From an uncultured Treponema sp. (GTDB taxonomy: Bacteria; Spirochaetota; Spirochaetia; Treponematales; Treponemataceae): a DNA stretch of 8,186 nt. Where the stretch lies: contig CAMJAJ010000043.1 of NCBI GenBank assembly GCA_946403565.1, forward strand, positions 1 through 8,186. The letters are read 5' to 3'. This document shows, in pieces, positions 1 to 8,186 of this stretch. Position 1 is the first letter of the stretch. The number at the start of each line of letters is the position of its first letter. The notes under the pieces were generated by a model, which saw only the letters and a list, made by a program, of their open reading frames with translations, searched no databases and was not told where the DNA came from. The translations under genes were made by a program, and so were the position numbers.

Positions 1-401
1 TACTCCATGAGCTGCGCGTTGGCCACGGTGTCGTTCGCTCGGTCCACCAGGTGCACGGAGTCCTGCATGCTGGACAGCTTGAGCTCGCGGTCATAATACA
101 TCTCCGCGCAGGTGAAGTCTATCTTCTCCTTTACGTTCGTGCCGCTCACGTTCCCTACGGCCTTGATGTAGCGGTAGTCCTTGCCCGAAAGCTCGATGGT
201 GTCGGCGAAGATCTCCACCCGCTCCGTCGTGATGCTCGCGTTCCCGGTCAGCCGGGCGAAGTCCCCCAACTTGCCGGAGCTGCCGGTCATGCTGTCCGCA
301 CGGAACATCACGGTCTCGCCAAAGGCCGGAAGCAGGAACAGGAAAAAAGCCAGAACGCGGGAGGCAAGGACGGAAGGACGGCAACGGTTCAGCTCATTCA
401 T
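1..401 (-). CDS. lptA: LptA/OstA-like periplasmic envelope-export protein (partial, C-terminus off left edge)
   Basis: The frame starts at the ATG at 401-399 and stays open to base 1, giving 133 residues. A signal peptide is visible: an Arg-containing N-terminus, a hydrophobic stretch LAFFLFLLPAFG (residues 17-28) and likely cleavage before Glu29. The mature part has the OstA pattern of short amphipathic beta strands: 'FRADSMTGSSGK', then 'LTGNASITTERVEIFADTIEL', then 'IKAVGNVSGT', then 'LVDRANDTVANAQLMEY'. In the family, LptA forms the periplasmic bridge that carries lipopolysaccharide or a similar glycolipid from the LptBFGC complex to LptD. It overlaps the end of the lptC-like gene by 8 nt. 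A strong AGGAGG (416-411) lies 9 nt before the ATG and supports this start. Confidence in the fold is high. The cargo is unknown, especially if the host is a spirochaete without classical LPS. An lptB gene may follow to the left, but it is not visible. Confidence 0.85.
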   Translation of the reverse strand, partial: MNELNRCRPSVLASRVLAFFLFLLPAFGETVMFRADSMTGSSGKLGDFARLTGNASITTERVEIFADTIELSGKDYRYIKAVGNVSGTNVKEKIDFTCAEMYYDRELKLSSMQDSVHLVDRANDTVANAQLME

Positions 402-1008
402 GCAGGCCGTCCTCCTCATCCGTGATGATGAAGCCGCTTACGCCGGAGGCAAAGGAGAACTCAGACCCCTTCTCCTGGGCAGAAAAGCCCCTTCCCTCCA
501 GGGTCAGCCCCCCCTTCGTAACCGTGGTCAGCCCCGACGAGGCGATCCGGCCCGTCAAGGTGCTCCACTTTATCGCCTCGCCTTCCAGGGTGAGCCCCTC
601 GTCCGGCTTCTCCATCACGACCGAGCCGTAGAAGGTGAGCCTGGCACGGCCCTGCCTGCCCAGTTGCTCTATGCCCAGGAGCTCGCAGCTTCCCTGGGCC
701 TCGACAGCGCCATCGGCAGAATAGGAGGAGAACTCCGCGTCCTCCACGAAGGTGACCGGCGGCGAGGCATACTGCTCGATCCTCGGCGAGTCCAAGGAAA
801 ATGAGATGGCGTTGTCCTCGTATCTGAAGAAGCTTGCGGACCTGAGCGTAAACTCAGGCGATGACGAACCCACCGCCGCATTCTGCGCGTAGTTGAGGGA
901 GCAGGATGCGACGAGCGGAAGGAAAAGCAGGACTGCAGCATGAGCGCAGCCCGAAAAGACCGAACGGGCGGCCTTTCCGGGCCTTTTCTCAGTTGAACAG
1001 GCTTCCAT
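394..1008 (-). CDS. lptC: LptC-like lipoprotein (LPS-export periplasmic component family)
   Basis: This 204-residue protein starts with a charged N-terminus and a hydrophobic stretch (about residues 22-33) ending in V33-A34-S35-C36. That is a good lipobox, so the mature protein is probably lipidated at Cys36. The rest is beta-rich. Its C-terminal part 'LTLEGEAIKWSTLTGRIAS', followed by 'LTLEGRGFSAQEKGSEFSF', matches the LptC pattern (threshold strand, 'L.W....~~~S', 'G.G~~a'). In the family, LptC accepts the glycolipid from LptF/G and passes it to LptA. Enterobacterial LptC is held by a transmembrane helix, whereas this one looks like a lipoprotein. The start overlaps the pyrG 3' end by 20 nt. 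An AGGGAG (1018-1013) sits 4 nt upstream of the ATG, inside pyrG. The stop overlaps the lptA start. An alternative start further in would damage the signal peptide. Assignment rests on the C-terminal motif and the neighbour, since LptC sequences diverge strongly. Confidence 0.78.
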   Translation of the reverse strand: MEACSTEKRPGKAARSVFSGCAHAAVLLFLPLVASCSLNYAQNAAVGSSSPEFTLRSASFFRYEDNAISFSLDSPRIEQYASPPVTFVEDAEFSSYSADGAVEAQGSCELLGIEQLGRQGRARLTFYGSVVMEKPDEGLTLEGEAIKWSTLTGRIASSGLTTVTKGGLTLEGRGFSAQEKGSEFSFASGVSGFIITDEEDGLHE

Positions 1009-2617
1009 CTTTCTCCCTGTTCAAGATTGCCGCCTGTATGAACGAGTCAAAGAGGGGGTGGGGCTTGGTCGGGCGGCTGACGAACTCGGGGTGGTACTGC
1101 ACGCCGATGCCCCAGGGATGGTCGGTCCACTCAAACGCCTCCACCTGGGAGTCCTCGGTGGAGCTGGCGGAGATGGCCAGGCCGTGCTCCTCCATGTCCT
1201 TGGCGTAGCGGCGGTCAAAGCTGTACTTGGACCGGTGCCGCTCGGTTATCTCGTCCGCATTGTATATGGAATAGAGCCTGGTGTCCTTCCGTATGGAGAC
1301 GGAGCTGGCCCCCAGCTTCATCACGTGGGAGGACGGCTCGGACTGCTCCTCCGGCAGGCTTATCACCGGGTGCTTGGAGTTCTGGATGAACTCGGTCGTG
1401 TCCGCATCCTCCCAGCCGCAGAGGTCGCGGGCGGTGTCGATCGCCATGAGCTGCATGCCCAGGTCTATCCCCAGGTAGGGAATCCTGTTCCTGCGGGCAT
1501 AGCGGACCGTGGCGAGGAGGCCCAAAAAGCCCCGCTGCCCGTAGTTCCCCGGAATCACGATGCCGTCCACCCCCTCAAAGAAGGAGGAAACGTCGTCCGT
1601 GTTCGCATTCTCCAGGGTCTCCGCGTCTATCTTGCGTATCTTTATCTCGGCGTCGTTGCCCGTCACGGCAGCATGGAACAGGGACTCCTGCACGGACTTG
1701 TAGCAGTTGTCCAGGTAGTCCTTCTTGCCCACCATGCCGATGCAGACCTTCTTGGAGGGGTGGCTGAGCCGGTCGATGAACGACGACCACTGCCTGATGT
1801 CCGTCGTCCTGTTGCCGAGCGAGAGCTTGTCCAGAATCAGCCTGTCCAGGCCCTGTCCATGGAAGATCTGAGGCAGCTCGTAGATGGACTTCTCCACGTC
1901 CGGGGAGACGAACACCGCCTCGGGGGAGACGTTGCAGAACAGGGCTATCTTCTTCTTGAGCGACTCGTCCACGGGGGCCTCGCAGCGGCAGAGCAGGATG
2001 TCCGGCTGGATTCCCACCTCCTGCAGCTGCTTCACGGAGTGCTGGGTCGGCTTGGACTTGAGCTCGCCTCCGGTGATGACGGGGATGAAGGTCAGGTGCA
2101 CGCTGATGGCGTTGCTCCTGCCCAGCTCCCGGACCAGCTGCCTGGCCGCCTCAAGGTAAGGCACGGCCTCTATGTCGCCGACCGTCCCCCCGATCTCCAC
2201 GACGACCACGTCCGCCTTGGACTTTTCCCCCAGGTGGCGGATGCAGCGCTTTATCTCGTCCGTTATGTGGGGAATCACCTGCACGGTCCTGCCGTTGTAG
2301 CGGCCGGCCCGCTCGTTCCTTATTACGTTCTCATAGACCTTGCCGATCGAGATGCAGTTCTCGTTCGTCAGGTTCACGCTGGTGAAGCGGCTGAAGTTGC
2401 CCAGGTCCAGGTCGGTCTCGGCCCCGTCCTCGGTGACGTAGACCTCGCCGTGCTGGTAGGGGCTTATGTTGCCCGCGTCCACGTTTATGTAGGGGTCGCA
2501 CTTCAACATTGAAATCTTAAGGGAGCTGCACTCAAGGAGGCTTCCAATCGTGCTGGAGGCAACTCCTTTGCCCAAGCTGGAGCAGACCCCGCTGGTAACA
2601 AGGATGTACTTACTCAT
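989..2617 (-). CDS. pyrG: CTP synthase with a degenerate glutaminase site
   Basis: This is a full-length 542-residue CTP synthase (E. coli PyrG has 545). The family makes CTP from UTP, ATP and glutamine-derived ammonia in the cytoplasm. The N-terminal synthase domain looks complete: P-loop SSLGKG (13-18, Lys17), 'KCDPYINVDAG' (39-49), 'VTEDGAETDLDLG' (61-73, Asp71), 'VEIGGTVGDIE' (140-150, Glu141), and 'GELKSKPTQHSVKQL' (184-198). The C-terminal class I glutamine amidotransferase domain (from about 290) keeps the HPE motif (His509, Glu511) and Gln388 and Glu409. The nucleophile motif, normally GICLGMQ, reads GIDLGMQ, with Asp385 encoded by GAC. The oxyanion loop GGFG is GNYG (357-360), and RHRHRYE is RHRSKYS. 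The enzyme therefore probably uses free ammonia. The ATG start matches the conserved family N-terminus, although its ribosome site (AGGCG) is weak. It heads an operon with the lptC- and lptA-like genes. CTP also feeds phospholipid and glycolipid precursors, which fits envelope neighbours. Confidence 0.97.
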   Translation of the reverse strand: MSKYILVTSGVCSSLGKGVASSTIGSLLECSSLKISMLKCDPYINVDAGNISPYQHGEVYVTEDGAETDLDLGNFSRFTSVNLTNENCISIGKVYENVIRNERAGRYNGRTVQVIPHITDEIKRCIRHLGEKSKADVVVVEIGGTVGDIEAVPYLEAARQLVRELGRSNAISVHLTFIPVITGGELKSKPTQHSVKQLQEVGIQPDILLCRCEAPVDESLKKKIALFCNVSPEAVFVSPDVEKSIYELPQIFHGQGLDRLILDKLSLGNRTTDIRQWSSFIDRLSHPSKKVCIGMVGKKDYLDNCYKSVQESLFHAAVTGNDAEIKIRKIDAETLENANTDDVSSFFEGVDGIVIPGNYGQRGFLGLLATVRYARRNRIPYLGIDLGMQLMAIDTARDLCGWEDADTTEFIQNSKHPVISLPEEQSEPSSHVMKLGASSVSIRKDTRLYSIYNADEITERHRSKYSFDRRYAKDMEEHGLAISASSTEDSQVEAFEWTDHPWGIGVQYHPEFVSRPTKPHPLFDSFIQAAILNREKDGSLFN

Positions 2618-2781: not shown

Positions 2782-4236
2782 ATGGCAAACAGGTGTCCAA
2801 GCTGCGGAGGAACGCTCCACTTTGACATACAGAAGCAGAAGCTGGTCTGCGACTACTGCGACAGCGCGTTCGACGCAGACAGCATAGCCCAGATGGGCGG
2901 AGCCGGCGAAAGCCAGGCATTCGGGCAGGAGGAGCCGGGCCAGCAGGACGGCGATACCATCGACGCCACGATATTCACCTGCCCCAACTGCGGGGCCGAG
3001 GTGTTCGCGACGGACCTGGACGCGGTGGAGTACTGCTCCTACTGCGGCACCTTCGTGACACTGGAAAGCCGCCTCGCCAAGCTGCAGAAGCCGTCCTACA
3101 TCCTTCCCTTCACGGTTACGAAGGAAAAATGCCTGGAGCTCTACCGGGAAAAGCTCAAGAAGGCCCGCTTCCTGCCCAAGGACATGAGCGTGGAAAAGGC
3201 GGAGAGCAGCTTCCGCAGGATCTACATCCCCTACTGGACCTACGACCTGGAATTTGACCCGAACAACCTGGTCAGCGTGGACACGCAGGAAAGCTGGACG
3301 AGCGGCAACAAGGAGTATACCCAGCACTACACGATACAGGCACGGGCGCAGGGCAGGTTGGACAACCTGTTCTTCGACGCGTCCGCGACCCTGGAGGACC
3401 GGATTGGCGAGGACATACGGAACTATCCCATGGACTCGCTCCAGCCCTACAACAGCTCCCTCATGGCAGGCTCCTACGCGGACATCGCGGACGTGGGCAA
3501 GGAGACGTATGAGGAGGACGTATACGAGGAGGGCAAGGAGGCCCTGATGGACCAGATCAGGTCCGACCTGTCGCAGAACGGCGGCCGGGGGGCTTCGGGA
3601 GCGTCCGTGCGCAAGACAGGCTCCCTGTCCAGCTTCAAATCATCCCAGGACGTGCGGTCGTACGGCAAGGTCACCGCCAAGCTCGCCATGCTCCCGGTCT
3701 GGTTCATGACCTGGAAGAACAAGAACAGGCTCTGCTACGCCGTCGTCAACGGCAGCACGGGCAAGATGTTCACGGAGATTCCGTCCGACCTCAAGAAGTA
3801 CACGCTTTCTTCCTTTATATTGGCCGTACCCATCTTCCTCCTGCTGGAATGCTTCCTGACCCTCATGCCCAAGACCCTGCTCATCGCGACGGCAGCCCTG
3901 TCGCTGATCATCCTGATCTGCTACTGGCGCGTCAGCAAGAGGCTCAAGCGGCAGGAGAACAGGACCGACGACAAGGGCTACCAGAAGGTCTACGGAACGC
4001 AGAAGGAGGCGTCCGGCGGCAACTCGTTCGGACTCGGCGCACTGCTTTCCATCCTTTCGCTCGTAGCCGCGGCGGGCCTCGTGTACCTGAACCCGGTGAA
4101 CGACCTCCTGTATTACGGCGGCGCTTTCCTCTGCATAGCAGGGGTGTTCGTGGCGATAGCCTCGATGGTCAAGGCGCACAACCTCGCCTGTTCCCGCCCA
4201 ATCCCGCACTTCTTTGACAAGAAGAAGGAGGCCTGA
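2782..4236 (+). CDS. Double zinc-ribbon membrane protein, function unknown
   Basis: The protein has 484 residues from the preferred ATG. Two zinc ribbons open it: Cys5-x2-Cys8 with Cys23-x2-Cys26, and Cys67-x2-Cys70 with Cys85-x2-Cys88, joined by a Gln/Gly/Glu-rich linker. A soluble middle part (about 95-335) contains 'RRIYIPYWTYDLEF', typical of bacterial 'TFIIB-type zinc ribbon' proteins of unknown role. Near the end of that part come 'KLAMLPVWFMTWKNKNRLCYAVVNG' features (cited by region 306-330). Four hydrophobic segments follow, at about 342-361, 365-382, 418-436 and 442-462, with a Lys/Arg-rich loop between the second and third, and a basic tail. The zinc ribbons are most likely cytoplasmic. 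The next gene, a TPM-domain protein, begins 2 nt after the stop, with its AAGGAGG inside this gene, so the two are co-translated. I recall similar zinc-ribbon/TPM neighbours in other bacteria, but no biochemical function is known to me. It is not an RNA polymerase or TFIIB subunit in spite of the usual label. Confidence 0.85.
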   Translation: MANRCPSCGGTLHFDIQKQKLVCDYCDSAFDADSIAQMGGAGESQAFGQEEPGQQDGDTIDATIFTCPNCGAEVFATDLDAVEYCSYCGTFVTLESRLAKLQKPSYILPFTVTKEKCLELYREKLKKARFLPKDMSVEKAESSFRRIYIPYWTYDLEFDPNNLVSVDTQESWTSGNKEYTQHYTIQARAQGRLDNLFFDASATLEDRIGEDIRNYPMDSLQPYNSSLMAGSYADIADVGKETYEEDVYEEGKEALMDQIRSDLSQNGGRGASGASVRKTGSLSSFKSSQDVRSYGKVTAKLAMLPVWFMTWKNKNRLCYAVVNGSTGKMFTEIPSDLKKYTLSSFILAVPIFLLLECFLTLMPKTLLIATAALSLIILICYWRVSKRLKRQENRTDDKGYQKVYGTQKEASGGNSFGLGALLSILSLVAAAGLVYLNPVNDLLYYGGAFLCIAGVFVAIASMVKAHNLACSRPIPHFFDKKKEA

Positions 4237-4238
4237 CG

Positions 4239-5108
4239 ATGAAGAAAATCACTGCGATTGCCCTTGCGGCGGCCCTGGCGGCCCTGGTTCCGCTTTCGGC
4301 CCAGGACGAAGTCCTCCCCATCGGGGACGGATACGAGAGCTACGAGTACGAGGATGACGGATACGAAGCGGCCCAGGACGACGGGCTGGAGGACTACGGA
4401 AGCGGTTCCCTCGCCGACGGCCCGAACTACATAAACGAGGACACCGGCTACGTCGCTGCGGTGCTGGACTGGTCAGACCTGCTGTCTGACGAGGAGGAGG
4501 AGCAGCTCATCGACGGCATGTATGCCATGACGGAATGGGGCAACGCCATCTTCTGCACGTGCGAGTCGGCACAGGGCAGCTCCGCCCAGGACCTTGCGGC
4601 CAGCATCTACGAAGGGATGTTCGGCCATGGGGCGAGCGGAAGCATCTTCTTCATAGACATGTACCGGCGCAGGCTGGAGATACACAGCGACGGCGAGGTC
4701 TACGAGACCATAACCGTCGATTACGCCCAGACCATCACGGACAACATCTACCGGATGGCAAGCGAAGGGGACTACTATTCCTGCGCGGCGGAAGCCTTCA
4801 GGCAGATGGAGACCCTGCTCGCCGGCGGACGGATCCGGCAGCCGATGAAGCACGCGAGCAATGCCCTGCTCGCCCTCGCGCTCGCCCTGTTCATCTGCTA
4901 CCTCTACATGGCCGGCAGCTCCAGGACCGCAAGCGAGAAGGCACAGCCCAAGGCCGACCCGGTGTTCAAGGGCAGCATCTCCGGGCTCGACGTCATCCCC
5001 GGACGCCTTACGTCCCGCGTCATACAAAGCTCCTCCAGCGGCAGGAGCGGATTCTCCGGCGGCGGTGGCGGCGGCCATTCCGGCGGTGGCGGCGGCCACA
5101 GCTTCTGA
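4239..5108 (+). CDS. Secreted, membrane-anchored TPM-domain protein with Gly-rich tail
   Basis: The protein has 289 residues. A signal peptide (Lys2-Lys3, hydrophobic 5-19) is likely cleaved after Ala21 (PLSA|Q). A strongly acidic, Tyr-rich stretch follows (24-63). A TPM domain covers about 70-195: 'YVAAVLDWSDLLSDEEEEQL', then 'GSIFFIDMYRRRLEIHSDGE', then 'DNIYRMASEGDYYSCAAEAF'. This matches the family pattern in which the domain lies outside the membrane. A transmembrane helix (208-225) precedes a basic, Ser-rich segment, and the protein ends in GGGGGGHSGGGGGHSF, a tail common in this family. TPM domains occur as phosphatases in plants and near membrane-repair or photosystem-repair proteins, but the bacterial role is mostly unclear. 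An AAGGAGG lies 7 nt before the ATG, inside the previous gene. The pair probably works together at the inner membrane, with this protein exposing its TPM domain to the periplasm. Confidence 0.85.
   Translation: MKKITAIALAAALAALVPLSAQDEVLPIGDGYESYEYEDDGYEAAQDDGLEDYGSGSLADGPNYINEDTGYVAAVLDWSDLLSDEEEEQLIDGMYAMTEWGNAIFCTCESAQGSSAQDLAASIYEGMFGHGASGSIFFIDMYRRRLEIHSDGEVYETITVDYAQTITDNIYRMASEGDYYSCAAEAFRQMETLLAGGRIRQPMKHASNALLALALALFICYLYMAGSSRTASEKAQPKADPVFKGSISGLDVIPGRLTSRVIQSSSSGRSGFSGGGGGGHSGGGGGHSF
5060..5098 (+). repeat. 18-bp direct repeat encoding the Gly-rich tail
   Basis: The 18-mer CGGCGGTGGCGGCGGCCA occurs at 5060-5077 and again at 5081-5098, separated by three bases. Each copy encodes a run of five or six Gly followed by His. 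The exact match at DNA level suggests a recent duplication or a slippage-prone site. Changes in copy number by multiples of 21 would only lengthen the tail. Confidence 0.75.
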
Positions 5109-5146
5109 CGGGCGGCATTTCCTGACGGGCGGCCCCTCAGGAAATG
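5105..5146 (+). terminator. Hairpin after the TPM gene, no U-tract
   Basis: CATTTCCTGA (5116-5125) and TCAGGAAATG (5137-5146) form a perfect 10-bp stem with an 11-nt GC-rich loop, starting 7 nt after the TPM stop. The 12-mer CTGACGGGCGGC is repeated at 5105-5116 and 5122-5133, the second copy spanning the stem and loop. No run of T follows on either strand, so it is not a classical intrinsic terminator. It may protect the mRNA 3' end, give weak termination or bind a protein. Confidence 0.45.
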
Positions 5147-5203
5147 TGTTCCTGTCAAAAGAAAAACCGGCTGGTTAATGGCGAACTTGCAAAAAACTGC
5201 CGA

Positions 5204-5209
5204 TATACT
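5204..5209 (+). promoter_or_regulatory. Candidate -10 element of the binding-protein/symporter operon
   Basis: TATACT fits the -10 consensus at 5/6 and stands out in a GC-rich context, 52 nt before the ATG at 5261. No good -35 lies at 16-18 nt; the nearest, TTGCAA (5187-5192), is only 11 nt away. The promoter may need an activator, or it may be a chance match. Confidence 0.35.
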
Positions 5210-5229
5210 CCTAGATAAGGGGAACTGTA

Positions 5230-5238
5230 TTTTTTTTT
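5230..5238 (+). repeat. T9 homopolymer in the leader of the binding-protein gene
   Basis: Nine consecutive T lie between the candidate -10 and the ribosome site. This is the longest homopolymer I noticed in the window. It is non-coding if the ATG at 5261 is the start. Confidence 0.7.
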
Positions 5239-5248
5239 GCAGCTTCTC

Positions 5249-5254
5249 GGGGAG
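5249..5254 (+). promoter_or_regulatory. Shine-Dalgarno that sets the binding-protein start
   Basis: GGGGAG lies 6 nt before the ATG at 5261. The in-frame TTG at 5237 has no ribosome site (it follows the T-run), and it would put this site in the coding sequence. The ATG also gives a clean signal peptide. Confidence 0.65.
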
Positions 5255-5260
5255 TCCTTT

Positions 5261-6073
5261 ATGAAGTTCATGCGAATCTTGGCAGCGGCCCTGCTCCTGC
5301 CGCTCATCCAGCCGGCCGTCGCACAGGTGTACGCAACCCGCGACGGCGACATGGCCCAGATACTGAAAAAAGGGGAGCTTAAGGTCGCCATCACGGCCGT
5401 AGACCAGCCTCCCTTCTACTTCACGCGCAAAGACGGCCTGCTCGCAGGCTACGACATAGACCTCGCCAACAAGATGGCGGAGGAGCTGGGGGTCAAGCTC
5501 GTGATAACCCGTGAAGCCCCCGCCTTCAACGACCTGGTCACGCTTGTCTCCGCAGGCAAGGCGGACCTGGCGATCTCAAAGCTGAGCCGCACCCTCACCC
5601 GCTCACGCTCCATCAAGTTCTCCACCCCCTACATGACCTTCAAGCAGGGAATCCTGTTCAACCGCCTGCAGCTGGCCAAGGTCGCCAGCGACAGCGAGGT
5701 CCACAAGTTCGTCAGGAACTACAAGGGCACGCTCGGCGTCATAGCGAACTCCTCGTATGCAAACTACGCCAAGGACAACTTCCCCGGCGCGACCATAAAG
5801 GAATACCCGACCTGGGATGCGGCGGTGCAGGCCCTGACCAACGGCGAGGTCCTTTCCTTATATAGGGACGAGCTTGAAATCAAGCGGGTGCTGGCCTCCA
5901 CTCCCAACAGCTCCCTGCTCTTCAAGCCCATCTACTTCACCGACCTGACCGACCCCATCGCGGTCGCGGTCAAGACCGAGAACACCCAGCTCCTCTACTG
6001 GGTCAACATCTTCCTGGAGAACCAGCCCAAGATGACGGCGGACGAGGTCCTCAAGAAATATTCCGGCCAATAG
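5261..6073 (+). CDS. Periplasmic amino-acid-type solute-binding protein (SBP family 3)
   Basis: The protein has 270 residues. A signal peptide (basic start, hydrophobic 6-17) is likely cleaved after Ala21 (PAVA|Q). The mature protein shows the family 3 pattern: 'GELKVAITAVDQPPFYF' (38-54), 'GYDIDLANKMAEELGVKL' (63-80), 'FNDLVTLVSAGKADLAIS' (89-106), then 'SRTLTRSRSIKFSTPYM' (109-125), where the Arg of the ligand alpha-carboxylate clamp normally lies. 'GVIANSSY' (159-166) and 'YRDEL' (201-205) belong to the second lobe, where an Asp usually holds the ligand amino group. Binding of an amino acid or a similar small ligand is therefore likely; which one cannot be told. Such proteins normally serve ABC permeases or receptors. 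Here the next gene, 14 nt downstream, is a symporter-like/Cache fusion and no ABC component follows. There is no lipobox, so it is probably soluble in the periplasm. Confidence 0.9.
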   Translation: MKFMRILAAALLLPLIQPAVAQVYATRDGDMAQILKKGELKVAITAVDQPPFYFTRKDGLLAGYDIDLANKMAEELGVKLVITREAPAFNDLVTLVSAGKADLAISKLSRTLTRSRSIKFSTPYMTFKQGILFNRLQLAKVASDSEVHKFVRNYKGTLGVIANSSYANYAKDNFPGATIKEYPTWDAAVQALTNGEVLSLYRDELEIKRVLASTPNSSLLFKPIYFTDLTDPIAVAVKTENTQLLYWVNIFLENQPKMTADEVLKKYSGQ

Positions 6074-6087
6074 GAGAGCCAGGCAGC

Positions 6088-8186
6088 ATGATAGGCAAGA
6101 TACTCAAGAACCCCATAACCATACTGATTTCCGTAGTCCTTGGAATCGTGTTCGGATTCTACGAGAAGGAGGCCGCCCTTTCCTGGGGTGTCCTCGGAGA
6201 CGTATACCTGAACCTCTTCCAGATGACGGTCATCCCCATCCTGGTCACGTCCATCGTGGCCAGCCTGGCCCAGCTGATGAAGGACGCGAACGCCCGGTCG
6301 CACATCGCGAAGATCCTCATCGTGTTCATGATAATGCTCGCAGCCACGTCGGTGTTCGGCACGCTGGTGGGGACGATGGCCCGCCCCGGCAAGGACCTGG
6401 GCGACGCGACGACGGCGGTCCTGGACAAGATCATCAAGTCCTCGGCGGACACGAGCAAGGACGAGATGGCCCTCTACGACCCGTCCCAGGATTCAGGCCA
6501 GAACAAGTCCTCCCTGGTGGACTTCTTCGTCAACATCATACCGTCCAACATCTTCAAGTCATTCAGCAACGGATCGATCCTGCAGCTGGTCTTCTTCTCG
6601 ATCATATTCGGTGTGGCCATAGGATTCCTGCGGGAGGACATGTCGGCCAGCCTAATACACGGGGTCATGTCGCTCAAGGACTCCTTCCAGAAGCTCATAA
6701 GCTGGACGATGTACGGCCTCCCCATCGGCCTCGTGTTCCTGATGGGCAAGCAGATAGCCCAGGTCGGCGTGGAGATACTGCTGGCGATGGTCAAGTTCAT
6801 CGTCGTGTTCTACATAGCCGGCCTCATCGCCATGCTGATCTGTACCGTCATCATCTGGATCCGTTCCGGCATAAAGAACCCCGTCAGCGTCCTGCAGAAG
6901 GTGATGGATCCGGTGATAATCTGTTTTGCGACGCGCAACAGCTTCGCCGCCATGCCTTCGTCGATTTCCGCACTCAAGCATCTTGGCTTCGGCGAGAACA
7001 TGGTGGACCTGGTGTTTCCGCTCGGCCTCACCGTGCTGCGCTTCGGCAACATCATGTATTTTGCATTGGCCTCGTGCTTCGTCGCGCAGGTGTATGACGC
7101 AAGCCTGCCGCTTTCGTCGCTCATGCTCATCATCGTGGGCTCCCTGCTCGCCGGAACGGCAACGGCAGGAGCTTCCGGCCTGCTCACGCTCCCGATGATT
7201 TCCCTCATACTGGATCCGATCGGCCTGCCGGTCGAATCCATCCTCGTCGTGTTCATGGCGATTGACTCCCTCATAGACCCCATGCGCACGCTGCTCATCG
7301 TCTACATGAACATAGCGACCACCTCGCTCGTCGCCCCCAAGGAGACAGCGGAGGAGCGGGCCGCGAACGCCCAGCTCCGGGAGGCCGCCGCGGAAGGAAG
7401 CAACATCTTCACGCTGGAGCCGGCCAGGATGGACGCCGTGGAAGCGCGGCAGGAGCCTGTCCAGCAGGAGCTGGCCATGTCCGCCCCAGTCGCCATGGCT
7501 GCTGCCCCCGTAGCGGCGGCAAGCACGCAGCCCCGGACGGTTCCCGTCAGCACGGGGTCCGGAGGCAGTACGGTAAAGTCACATTCAAGCGGCATGAAGA
7601 TCAGGATCCGCGATGCCCTCGTCCTCCTGAACACGGTGCTGCTCGTCACGACGGCGGCGGTCATCATACGGATAAACTCCCACGGAACCCAGGACTCGGT
7701 CTACTCGGTCTCAACCAAGCTCGTCACGGAGATCCTCAAGTCCGTGGACACCAAGCTCGAGGCCTATTACACGCCCGCCGACCAGGCAATCCACAACATC
7801 GCATTCCATTACTGGAATGATGACAAGTACAACTTCAGGGCGGACAAGGAAAAGGCCCTGGACTACTTCATGGAGCTGCTCAAGACACACAGCGAGTTCG
7901 CAATGGTCTACTTCGGTGACACGGAGGGCAACCTGATCATGGGCCGCCGCATGCCGGACGGCTCGCTGACGCGGCGCTACATCAACCGGACCAGTTCGTC
8001 GGTCATCACCCGCTACGTCCACGAGAACAAGCAGTACAATGCAATCTTCCCGACGACGGAAGAGGCGCTGGAAAACGGCTACGACCCCCGTACCCGCGGC
8101 TGGTACAAGAAGGCGGTGGAAAACAAGAAGACCGTCTGGACCAACGTCTACATCTTCGCGACCGACAACATGCCGGGCTTCTCCTG
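6088..8186 (+). CDS. DAACS symporter-like domain fused to dCache sensor (partial, C-terminus off right edge)
   Basis: One frame runs from the ATG at 6088 to the window end, 699 residues without a stop. Residues 1 to about 415 have the SDF (glutamate/dicarboxylate:cation symporter) fold. Recognisable parts are 'MTVIPILVTSIVASL' (46-60), the HP1 loop with 'TRNSFAAMPSS' (282-292), TM7 'PLGLTVLRFGN' (311-321), the HP2 loop 'GTATAGASGLLTLPM' (356-370), and TM8 with Asp393, Asp397, Arg400 and Thr401. An Ala/Pro/Gln-rich linker (about 416-502) leads to basic 'MKIRIRD' and a transmembrane helix (510-529). A dCache-type extracytoplasmic sensor follows, with the hallmark 'YDPRTRGWYKKAVENKKTVW' (665-684). 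The output domain is outside the window; a cyclase, histidine kinase, diguanylate cyclase or chemoreceptor are all possible. GGAG (6073-6076) lies 11 nt before the ATG and overlaps the preceding stop. No ribosome site precedes Met503, so a separate sensor gene is unlikely. The transporter part lacks the NMDGT motif and may sense and not transport. Confidence 0.9.
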   Translation, partial: MIGKILKNPITILISVVLGIVFGFYEKEAALSWGVLGDVYLNLFQMTVIPILVTSIVASLAQLMKDANARSHIAKILIVFMIMLAATSVFGTLVGTMARPGKDLGDATTAVLDKIIKSSADTSKDEMALYDPSQDSGQNKSSLVDFFVNIIPSNIFKSFSNGSILQLVFFSIIFGVAIGFLREDMSASLIHGVMSLKDSFQKLISWTMYGLPIGLVFLMGKQIAQVGVEILLAMVKFIVVFYIAGLIAMLICTVIIWIRSGIKNPVSVLQKVMDPVIICFATRNSFAAMPSSISALKHLGFGENMVDLVFPLGLTVLRFGNIMYFALASCFVAQVYDASLPLSSLMLIIVGSLLAGTATAGASGLLTLPMISLILDPIGLPVESILVVFMAIDSLIDPMRTLLIVYMNIATTSLVAPKETAEERAANAQLREAAAEGSNIFTLEPARMDAVEARQEPVQQELAMSAPVAMAAAPVAAASTQPRTVPVSTGSGGSTVKSHSSGMKIRIRDALVLLNTVLLVTTAAVIIRINSHGTQDSVYSVSTKLVTEILKSVDTKLEAYYTPADQAIHNIAFHYWNDDKYNFRADKEKALDYFMELLKTHSEFAMVYFGDTEGNLIMGRRMPDGSLTRRYINRTSSSVITRYVHENKQYNAIFPTTEEALENGYDPRTRGWYKKAVENKKTVWTNVYIFATDNMPGFS

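What the first reader, a model, noticed from the sequence alone, without database searches (positions are those of the whole stretch)
6088..8186. Symporter fold fused in one frame to a Cache sensor: candidate transceptor
A complete DAACS transporter domain, an Ala/Pro linker, a transmembrane helix and a dCache domain lie in one uninterrupted frame. The topology is consistent: the transporter C-terminus is cytoplasmic in this family, so the helix at 510-529 would carry the Cache domain to the periplasm, and an output domain could return to the cytoplasm beyond the edge. This suggests that transport or substrate occupancy is linked to signalling in one polypeptide. I do not recall a characterised protein of this architecture.
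Basis: partly seen in the sequence, partly recalled or inferred. Interest (0 to 1): 0.8.

Follow-up and report, generated by a model that had tools for sequence, protein, structure and literature searches.

The report
Glutamate-carrier-like domain fused to cyclase
In gut spirochaetes a protein shaped like the glutamate carriers is joined in one chain to an external sensor and a predicted cyclic-AMP-making enzyme, beside genes for an amino-acid-binding protein and a racemase, which suggests a built-in amino-acid sensor rather than an ordinary carrier.

Summary
The fusion is real. The window ends inside a ~1,200-residue gene; 30 database relatives (P0002-P0031) read SDF carrier domain - linker - TM - dCache - TM - class III cyclase. 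The missing output is a predicted adenylate cyclase with catalytic residues kept.

The gene lies in a conserved set: a family-3 amino-acid-type binding protein directly upstream (20 of 20 loci with room) and an Asp/Glu-type racemase directly downstream (15 of 16 with room). Relatives carry the same parts as separate neighbours, and fusion arose at least twice.

An arginine replaces the NMDGT methionine in 144 of 146 aligned rows; the two without it are the solved reference and a DctA-like control. The main acidic-amino-acid ligands remain. Three proteobacterial plasmids show binding protein - SDF - racemase without cyclase.

Most likely a binding-protein-fed amino-acid receptor or transceptor signalling through cAMP, like E. 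coli DctA/DcuS in one chain. Ligand, transport, cAMP production and coupling are not shown; the linker (57-97 residues where measured) is predicted disordered, which speaks against rigid coupling.

The parts
5261..6073 (+). Family-3 solute-binding protein (SBP_bac_3) with a signal-peptide-like start (by eye), 14 bases before the fusion gene
   Evidence: Pfam PF00497 80.6 vs 26.4 bits; directly upstream of the fusion in 20 of 20 loci with room, 66-94% identical; Arg and Asp at the alpha-carboxylate and alpha-amino positions (roles recalled) in 39 of 40 (one gap) and 40 of 40 aligned SBPs
6088..8186 (+). Fusion gene, N-terminal part, open at the window edge (699 residues of about 1,200)
   Evidence: full-length relatives 1,176-1,218 aa, one (P0024) cut at 1,040
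6118..7335 (+). SDF (GltPh/SLC1-like) membrane domain, residues 11-416
   Evidence: Pfam PF00375 244 bits vs 27.9; Foldseek best matches GltPh (model of relative P0005)
7039..7041 (+). Codon of Arg318, in the place of the NMDGT methionine (window reads LRFGN)
   Evidence: position counted from the sequence
7264..7311 (+). TM8 ligand stretch: D393, D397, R400, T401 kept; Ile404 for Asn405 and Asn408 for Asp409 (GltTk numbers)
7336..7596 (+). Ala-rich linker, residues 417-503; predicted disordered in relative P0005
   Evidence: 57-97 aa in the 20 of 31 lineage-A rows that the pattern measured; pLDDT about 30 over P0005 429-494
7597..7674 (+). Start of the cyclase-type half (KIRIRDAL...) and first TM helix; split relatives begin their cyclase gene here
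7690..8186 (+). First part of the dCache sensor domain, cut by the window edge

Best explanation
The window holds the first half of an amino-acid receptor built on a carrier fold. Shown by sequence: a gene set binding protein - [SDF-linker-TM-dCache-TM-class III cyclase] - Asp/Glu-type racemase; an SDF without the GltPh/GltTk sodium ligands but with the main acidic-amino-acid ligands; a cyclase with its catalytic residues; split relatives with the same gene set; at least two independent fusions. Inferred: the binding protein captures an amino acid, probably acidic (Asp, Glu or an analogue), and presents it to the SDF, where the invariant Arg stands in for sodium so that binding needs no sodium gradient; the state of the SDF, together with the dCache sensor held next to it, sets the cyclase rate, so that external amino acid becomes cytoplasmic cAMP; the racemase handles the imported amino acid. 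The covalent fusion fixes a partnership that exists between separate proteins in relatives.
For: Gene set; split genes with ATGA overlap in L069 whose cyclase starts exactly at the fusion junction; two fused lineages, one origin rejected at p-AU 2e-98 on a quick 75-row tree; Arg for Met in 144 of 146 rows, D394 and R401 kept in 138 of 138 and D398 as D in 134 and E in 4; ordinary SDF paralogues of the same genomes keep NMDGT/A and have no SBP within about 1.5 kb (3 of 4 read); cyclase residues; racemase above the asp_race and PF01177 cut-offs, both Cys positions kept in 31 of 31; SBP alpha-amino-acid residues; DctA/DcuS precedent (PMC8307970 passages).
Against: No experiment. The linker is predicted disordered and its sequence varies, so a rigid lever is unlikely. 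Known SDF proteins are trimers and class III cyclases dimers (recalled), so stoichiometry is unexplained. The dCache could be the only sensor; its pocket keeps Y, R, W, Y and a later D of the amino-acid motif but has Lys at the second Asp position (that position recalled). N405, which the reference keeps, is Ile, Leu or Asn, so substrate contacts are not all kept. Five of 22 non-lineage-A loci have no cyclase nearby. pTM is only 0.39.
Confidence: 0.5

Rival explanations
1. Yoked but not talking: the SDF is a working binding-protein-fed carrier, the dCache-cyclase senses on its own, and the fusion only fixes amount and place.
For: Disordered linker of 57-97 residues; three proteobacterial plasmids have SBP-SDF-racemase with no cyclase found in about 11 kb, so the SDF part can do without it; stand-alone dCache-cyclases P0032-P0040 exist.
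Against: Independent fusions in the same order and cyclase pieces on SDF tails (L076, P0041) hint at contact.
Confidence: 0.25
2. The SDF is a non-transporting scaffold or receptor that makes the dCache-cyclase responsive, as DctA does for DcuS independent of transport.
For: PMC8307970 passages; sodium ligands lost; in L096 the SDF fused to a dCache-cyclase has lost nearly all the ligand residues looked at.
Against: In the window's clade D394, D398 (D/E) and R401 are kept in 138 of 138; binding protein and racemase suggest uptake.
Confidence: 0.2
3. Frameshift or assembly join of two neighbouring genes.
For: Two-gene forms exist (L069, L070); the named sources of fused copies are metagenome assemblies.
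Against: 30 fused relatives, contigs up to 331 kb; purifying selection through the junction, linker included; a second fused lineage.
Confidence: 0.01

Closest known systems
E. coli DctA/DcuS sensor unit (PMC8307970: abstract and passages read)
   Same: An SDF carrier paired with a sensor that has an extracytoplasmic PAS/Cache-type domain; coupling through the carrier's C-terminal end
   Different: Two proteins, histidine kinase output, C4-dicarboxylates; here one chain, cyclase output, binding protein and racemase genes
CbrA of Pseudomonas (SLC5-type carrier fused to histidine kinase; PMC7096432: abstract read)
   Same: Carrier domain and signalling enzyme in one polypeptide; CbrA transports L-histidine
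   Different: Other carrier fold, PAS and kinase; [quoted passage not shown]
Ks-Amt5 (ammonium transporter fused to histidine kinase; PMC5764959: abstract and section headings read)
   Same: Carrier recruited as sensory module; binds but does not translocate its ligand
   Different: Amt fold, kinase, no binding protein in the abstract
Class III cyclases with membrane anchors as receptors (PMC4821796: abstract read)
   Same: Membrane domain proposed to regulate a class III cyclase
   Different: Six-TM anchors; here an SDF carrier domain plus dCache
TRAP and TTT binding-protein-dependent secondary carriers (PMC5812351 search listing; PMC8276074 passages)
   Same: Periplasmic binding protein works with a membrane carrier that is not an ABC transporter
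   Different: Different membrane proteins; no SDF carrier was named in the passages seen

Membership tests
SDF family (PF00375) | Profile score above the gathering cut-off | tested here: met
   244 vs 27.9 bits
SDF family, sodium-coupled GltPh/GltTk kind | NMDGT motif and sodium-site residues Y91, T94, S95, N313, M314, D315, D409 (GltTk) | tested here: not met
   In the window's clade F, M/V/A, L, L, R, F, N (roles from passages of PMC8431971)
SDF family, sodium-coupled GltPh/GltTk kind | Acidic-amino-acid ligands D394, D398, R401 | tested here: met
   138 of 138, D398 as D in 134 and E in 4
DctA C4-dicarboxylate carrier / GltP | NCBIfam model cut-off | tested here: not met
   DctA 135 vs 513, GltP 115 vs 638 bits
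dCache sensor (PF02743, PF22673) | Profile score above the cut-off | tested here: met
   In relatives (five fused proteins); not in the window, where the domain is cut
dCache amino-acid receptor (dCache_1AA) | Pocket motif Y121, R126, W128, Y129, D131, D173 (PctA numbers, partly recalled) | tested here: inconclusive
   Y-x4-R-x-WY in 40 of 41; the D173 position aligned to Asp and D131 to Lys against PctC; R126, Y121, D173 roles from passages of PMC10104139
Class III adenylate cyclase (PF00211) | Profile cut-off and metal Asp pair, Lys/Thr base pair, Asn/Arg (roles recalled) | tested here: met
   Profile in the five fused relatives; residues in L005 against CyaB; product not testable here
Asp/Glu racemase (downstream gene, outside the window) | TIGR00035 and PF01177 cut-offs; two catalytic Cys | tested here: met
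   L003: 127.9 vs 93.1 and 78.4 vs 31; Cys in 31 of 31
Cysteate racemase CuyB | NCBIfam cut-off | tested here: not met
   147 vs 190 bits
Transceptor | Substrate transport or occupancy controls signalling | not testable with these tools
   Needs experiment
Binding-protein-dependent secondary carrier | Binding protein delivers substrate to the carrier | not testable with these tools
   Only gene neighbourhood is shown

The most novel reading that the evidence does not exclude
An unrecognised class of binding-protein-dependent SDF proteins in which an invariant arginine replaces bound sodium: sodium-independent amino-acid receptors or carriers that work with a periplasmic binding protein and a racemase, and that spirochaetes have wired, at least twice by covalent fusion, to a dCache-adenylate cyclase, so that one polypeptide turns an external, perhaps D- or L-acidic, amino acid into cAMP.
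Probability: 0.42. Interest if true: 0.87.

Novelty: new variant of a known kind. Interest (0 to 1): 0.75.

Why it matters
Few fusions of a carrier with a signalling enzyme are characterised (CbrA and Ks-Amt5 are the ones found here). This one uses the fold of the human glutamate carriers, and relatives show the pairing at every stage from separate genes to one chain. The arginine that replaces the sodium-site methionine in a whole clade is a natural experiment on ion coupling. If the binding protein feeds the SDF, a further kind of binding-protein-dependent secondary carrier would stand beside TRAP and TTT.

Tried and rejected
Assembly artefact: rejected. Ordinary sodium symporter: family matched, ion sites not. 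DctA or GltP: far under the NCBIfam cut-offs. Naming the binding protein's ligand from sequence: none of the 12 NCBIfam models listed reached its cut-off; the nearest solved chains are reconstructed ancestral binding proteins and then assorted amino-acid binders and cyclohexadienyl dehydratases. Promoter and terminator scan of 5050-6150: 0 promoters; 2 terminator-like sites against 1.3 expected. Rfam: no match at gathering score. One search used the wrong half of the L096 protein (its cyclase end) and says nothing about the SDF. Plasmid search with the Gemmobacter SDF: 4 records at E<=1e-40. Paper searches listed no paper whose title or abstract start describes an SDF-Cache-cyclase fusion; the library misses most subscription papers. 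Taxa outside Spirochaetota were not sampled evenly: one genome-contig scan was allowed, and genome searches centred on spirochaetes only. An early note (entry 1) says 31 fused relatives; the listing shows 30.

Full report
WHAT IS THERE. ORF 6088-8184(+) runs off the window. Residues 11-416 are an SDF domain; from residue 504 on it is the start of a TM-dCache-TM-cyclase protein. In the protein database P0002-P0031 (30 proteins; P0024 cut at 1,040 aa, the rest 1,176-1,218) carry SDF, dCache and Guanylate_cyc (five re-scanned). P0001 is a 739-aa partial without SDF; P0032-P0040 are dCache-cyclases of 702-711 aa. The scan of species genomes gave 21 loci, titled Treponema, Spirochaetaceae or Spirochaetales, several from rumen samples by title. 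The SDF at E<=1e-40 was found in 26 of 274 genomes of the family, 25 of 291 drawn from the order and 9 of 392 drawn from the phylum; the draws overlap.

OUTPUT DOMAIN. The part beyond the edge, read from locus L005, matches CyaB (3r5g, 3.7e-32) and a bacteriophytochrome-adenylate cyclase chain (6fht, 1.3e-28); FSDIENF, DKYIGDSIMAF and NYTVLGDNVNLASRLE keep the two metal Asp, the Lys and Thr that choose adenine and the Asn/Arg pair (roles recalled). Adenylate cyclase is the prediction; the product is untested. The AlphaFold model of P0005 (70-row alignment, mean pLDDT 72.8, pTM 0.39) shows the SDF helices, a short helix 421-431, a linker with pLDDT about 30 (429-494), a long helix 489-558, a mixed sheet-and-helix sensor region, a second long helix 819-869, the cyclase (strands and helices 928-1117) and C-terminal helices. 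The 50 Foldseek matches shown are GltPh, GltTk, the ancestral uncoupled aspartate transporters and ASCT2. SDF proteins end in the cytoplasm and the stand-alone cyclase would start there, so fusion needs no change of topology (inference).

GENE SET. In the window: SBP 5261-6073, 14 bases, fusion at 6088. The SBP is directly upstream in 20 of 20 loci with room (L004 starts inside the fusion gene), 66-94% identical; the window's genes further upstream were found in 5 of the loci only (L001, L003, L006, L018, L020). A racemase overlaps or abuts the end of the fusion in 15 of 16 loci with room; L016 has 947 bases and none; L002, L011, L013, L019 and L020 lack room. It passes TIGR00035 and PF01177; the cysteate racemase model scores higher but stays under its cut-off. 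Two Cys positions are kept in 31 of 31 racemases.

SPLIT FORMS AND ORIGINS. Among 22 further loci (L069-L086, L089, L094-L096), SBP-SDF-cyclase-racemase stand as separate neighbours in nine: L069, L070, L072, L077, L082, L083, L084, L085, L094. The SBP frame in L069 is only 154 aa, and one search counted one in-frame stop in the SDF stretch that L082 covers. L075 is the same with the SBP side cut. L076 and L080 have another order. L081 has no racemase despite room. L095 is cut in the cyclase. L073 and L078 are fused (lineage B). L096 has its cyclase on another, decayed SDF. L071, L074, L079, L086 and L089 have no cyclase nearby. In L069 SDF and cyclase overlap by ATGA and the cyclase starts MKIKIRDAL, where the fused copies continue. 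A quick tree of 75 SDF rows (14 of 31 lineage-A rows, all 20 of P0041-P0060, 24 of the 70 rows P0061-P0130, 17 locus rows; duplicates, decayed copies and the reference left out) separates lineages A and B; holding them together lowers the log-likelihood by 349, p-AU 2e-98. P0041, inside lineage A, has no dCache and a decayed cyclase tail. L096 may be a third fusion; it was not in the tree as a fused row.

THE SDF IS ODD. Sodium-site residues come from passages of PMC8431971: Na3 Y91, T94, S95, N313, D315; Na1 N313, G309, D409, N405; Na2 T311, S352, I353, T355 and the NMDGT Met. In the 31 lineage-A rows they read F, M/V/A, L, L, F at the Na3 positions, Asn at D409 and Arg at the Met. Over 138 spirochaete-side rows (31 + 20 + 82 + P0041 + P0060 + 3; some locus rows repeat database rows) Arg and Asn409 are in all, N313, D315 and an S or T at 95 in none, T94 in 2, Y91 in 1, N405 in 6. 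Of all 146 rows only the solved reference and DctA-like L090 lack the Arg. The rows were found with the window's SDF as query (120 of 174 matches listed; only 7,996 candidates scored), so this is a clade trait. Controls: ordinary SDF paralogues in L027, L029 and L030 read NMDGT or NMDGA, and no SBP was found within about 1.5 kb; the fourth, L028, was not recovered by my frame filter. Against full conservation of the pocket: N405 is mostly Ile or Leu, T317 is Asn. That a basic side chain can take a sodium's place in other carrier folds (CaiT, ApcT) is recalled, not looked up.

OUTSIDE SPIROCHAETES. The Gemmobacter (L089), Paraburkholderia (L087) and Cupriavidus (L088) plasmids have SBP, SDF, racemase and a second SDF in that order, with no cyclase found in about 11 kb. 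L089 and L087 carry the Arg (L088 was not aligned). So the core is SBP-SDF-racemase; the cyclase looks like a spirochaete addition (inference from few loci).

HOW IT MAY WORK. Shown: parts, order, residues, repeated fusion. Inferred: the binding protein hands an amino acid to the SDF; the SDF state and the dCache ligand set cyclase output; the racemase handles what enters. In E. coli, DctA makes DcuS responsive through a helix after TM8, independent of transport (passages of PMC8307970); here the pairing is in one chain with another output. The disordered linker argues for tethering plus contacts elsewhere, not a rod.

VERDICT. Observation confirmed; reading partly supported. The transceptor idea is plausible, the plain symporter label probably not. 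Class: new variant of a known kind. The boldest reading not excluded is a new class of binding-protein-dependent, sodium-free SDF proteins.

Noticed in passing
L096:3-3479 (-): A 1,159-aa protein fuses a dCache-cyclase to a second, decayed SDF domain (Pfam 60 vs 27.9 bits) that lacks the ligand residues, next to an intact SDF and an SBP gene: possibly a third fusion.
   Followed up: partly
P0084, P0110, P0062; L072:4922-6790, L084, L085: Some SDFs carry a whole or shortened SBP_bac_3 domain after the last TM helix, where it should be cytoplasmic: perhaps a sensor of internal amino acid. P0084 and P0062 pass the Pfam cut-off (51 and 33.5 vs 26.4); the L072, L084, L085 tails match below it.
   Followed up: partly
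L076:4459-6192 (-); P0041: SDF tails made of the C-terminal part of the cyclase without its metal-binding half, possibly a partner for the complete cyclase.
   Followed up: partly
L087, L088 (Paraburkholderia and Cupriavidus plasmids): The SBP-SDF-racemase-SDF set lies beside type VI secretion genes: T6SS_VasE and a ClpB-type AAA in L087, a VgrG-like hub protein in L088.
   Followed up: no
L089:6990-8330 (+); L087:6922-8373 (+): A second SDF gene follows the racemase; it has lost most ligand residues though the Arg remains. It may form mixed carriers with the first SDF.
   Followed up: no
L003:11840-13930, L006:11827-13866, L016:122-2101: Another cyclase-like gene lies within a few kb of the fusion in these loci.
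   Followed up: no
window 2785-5108 (+): Zinc-ribbon membrane protein gene and TPM-domain gene upstream of the SBP; found next to it in 5 related loci only.
   Followed up: no
window 3-2617 (-): CTP synthase and LptC-like gene, then an LptA-like frame (by eye), on the other strand.
   Followed up: no
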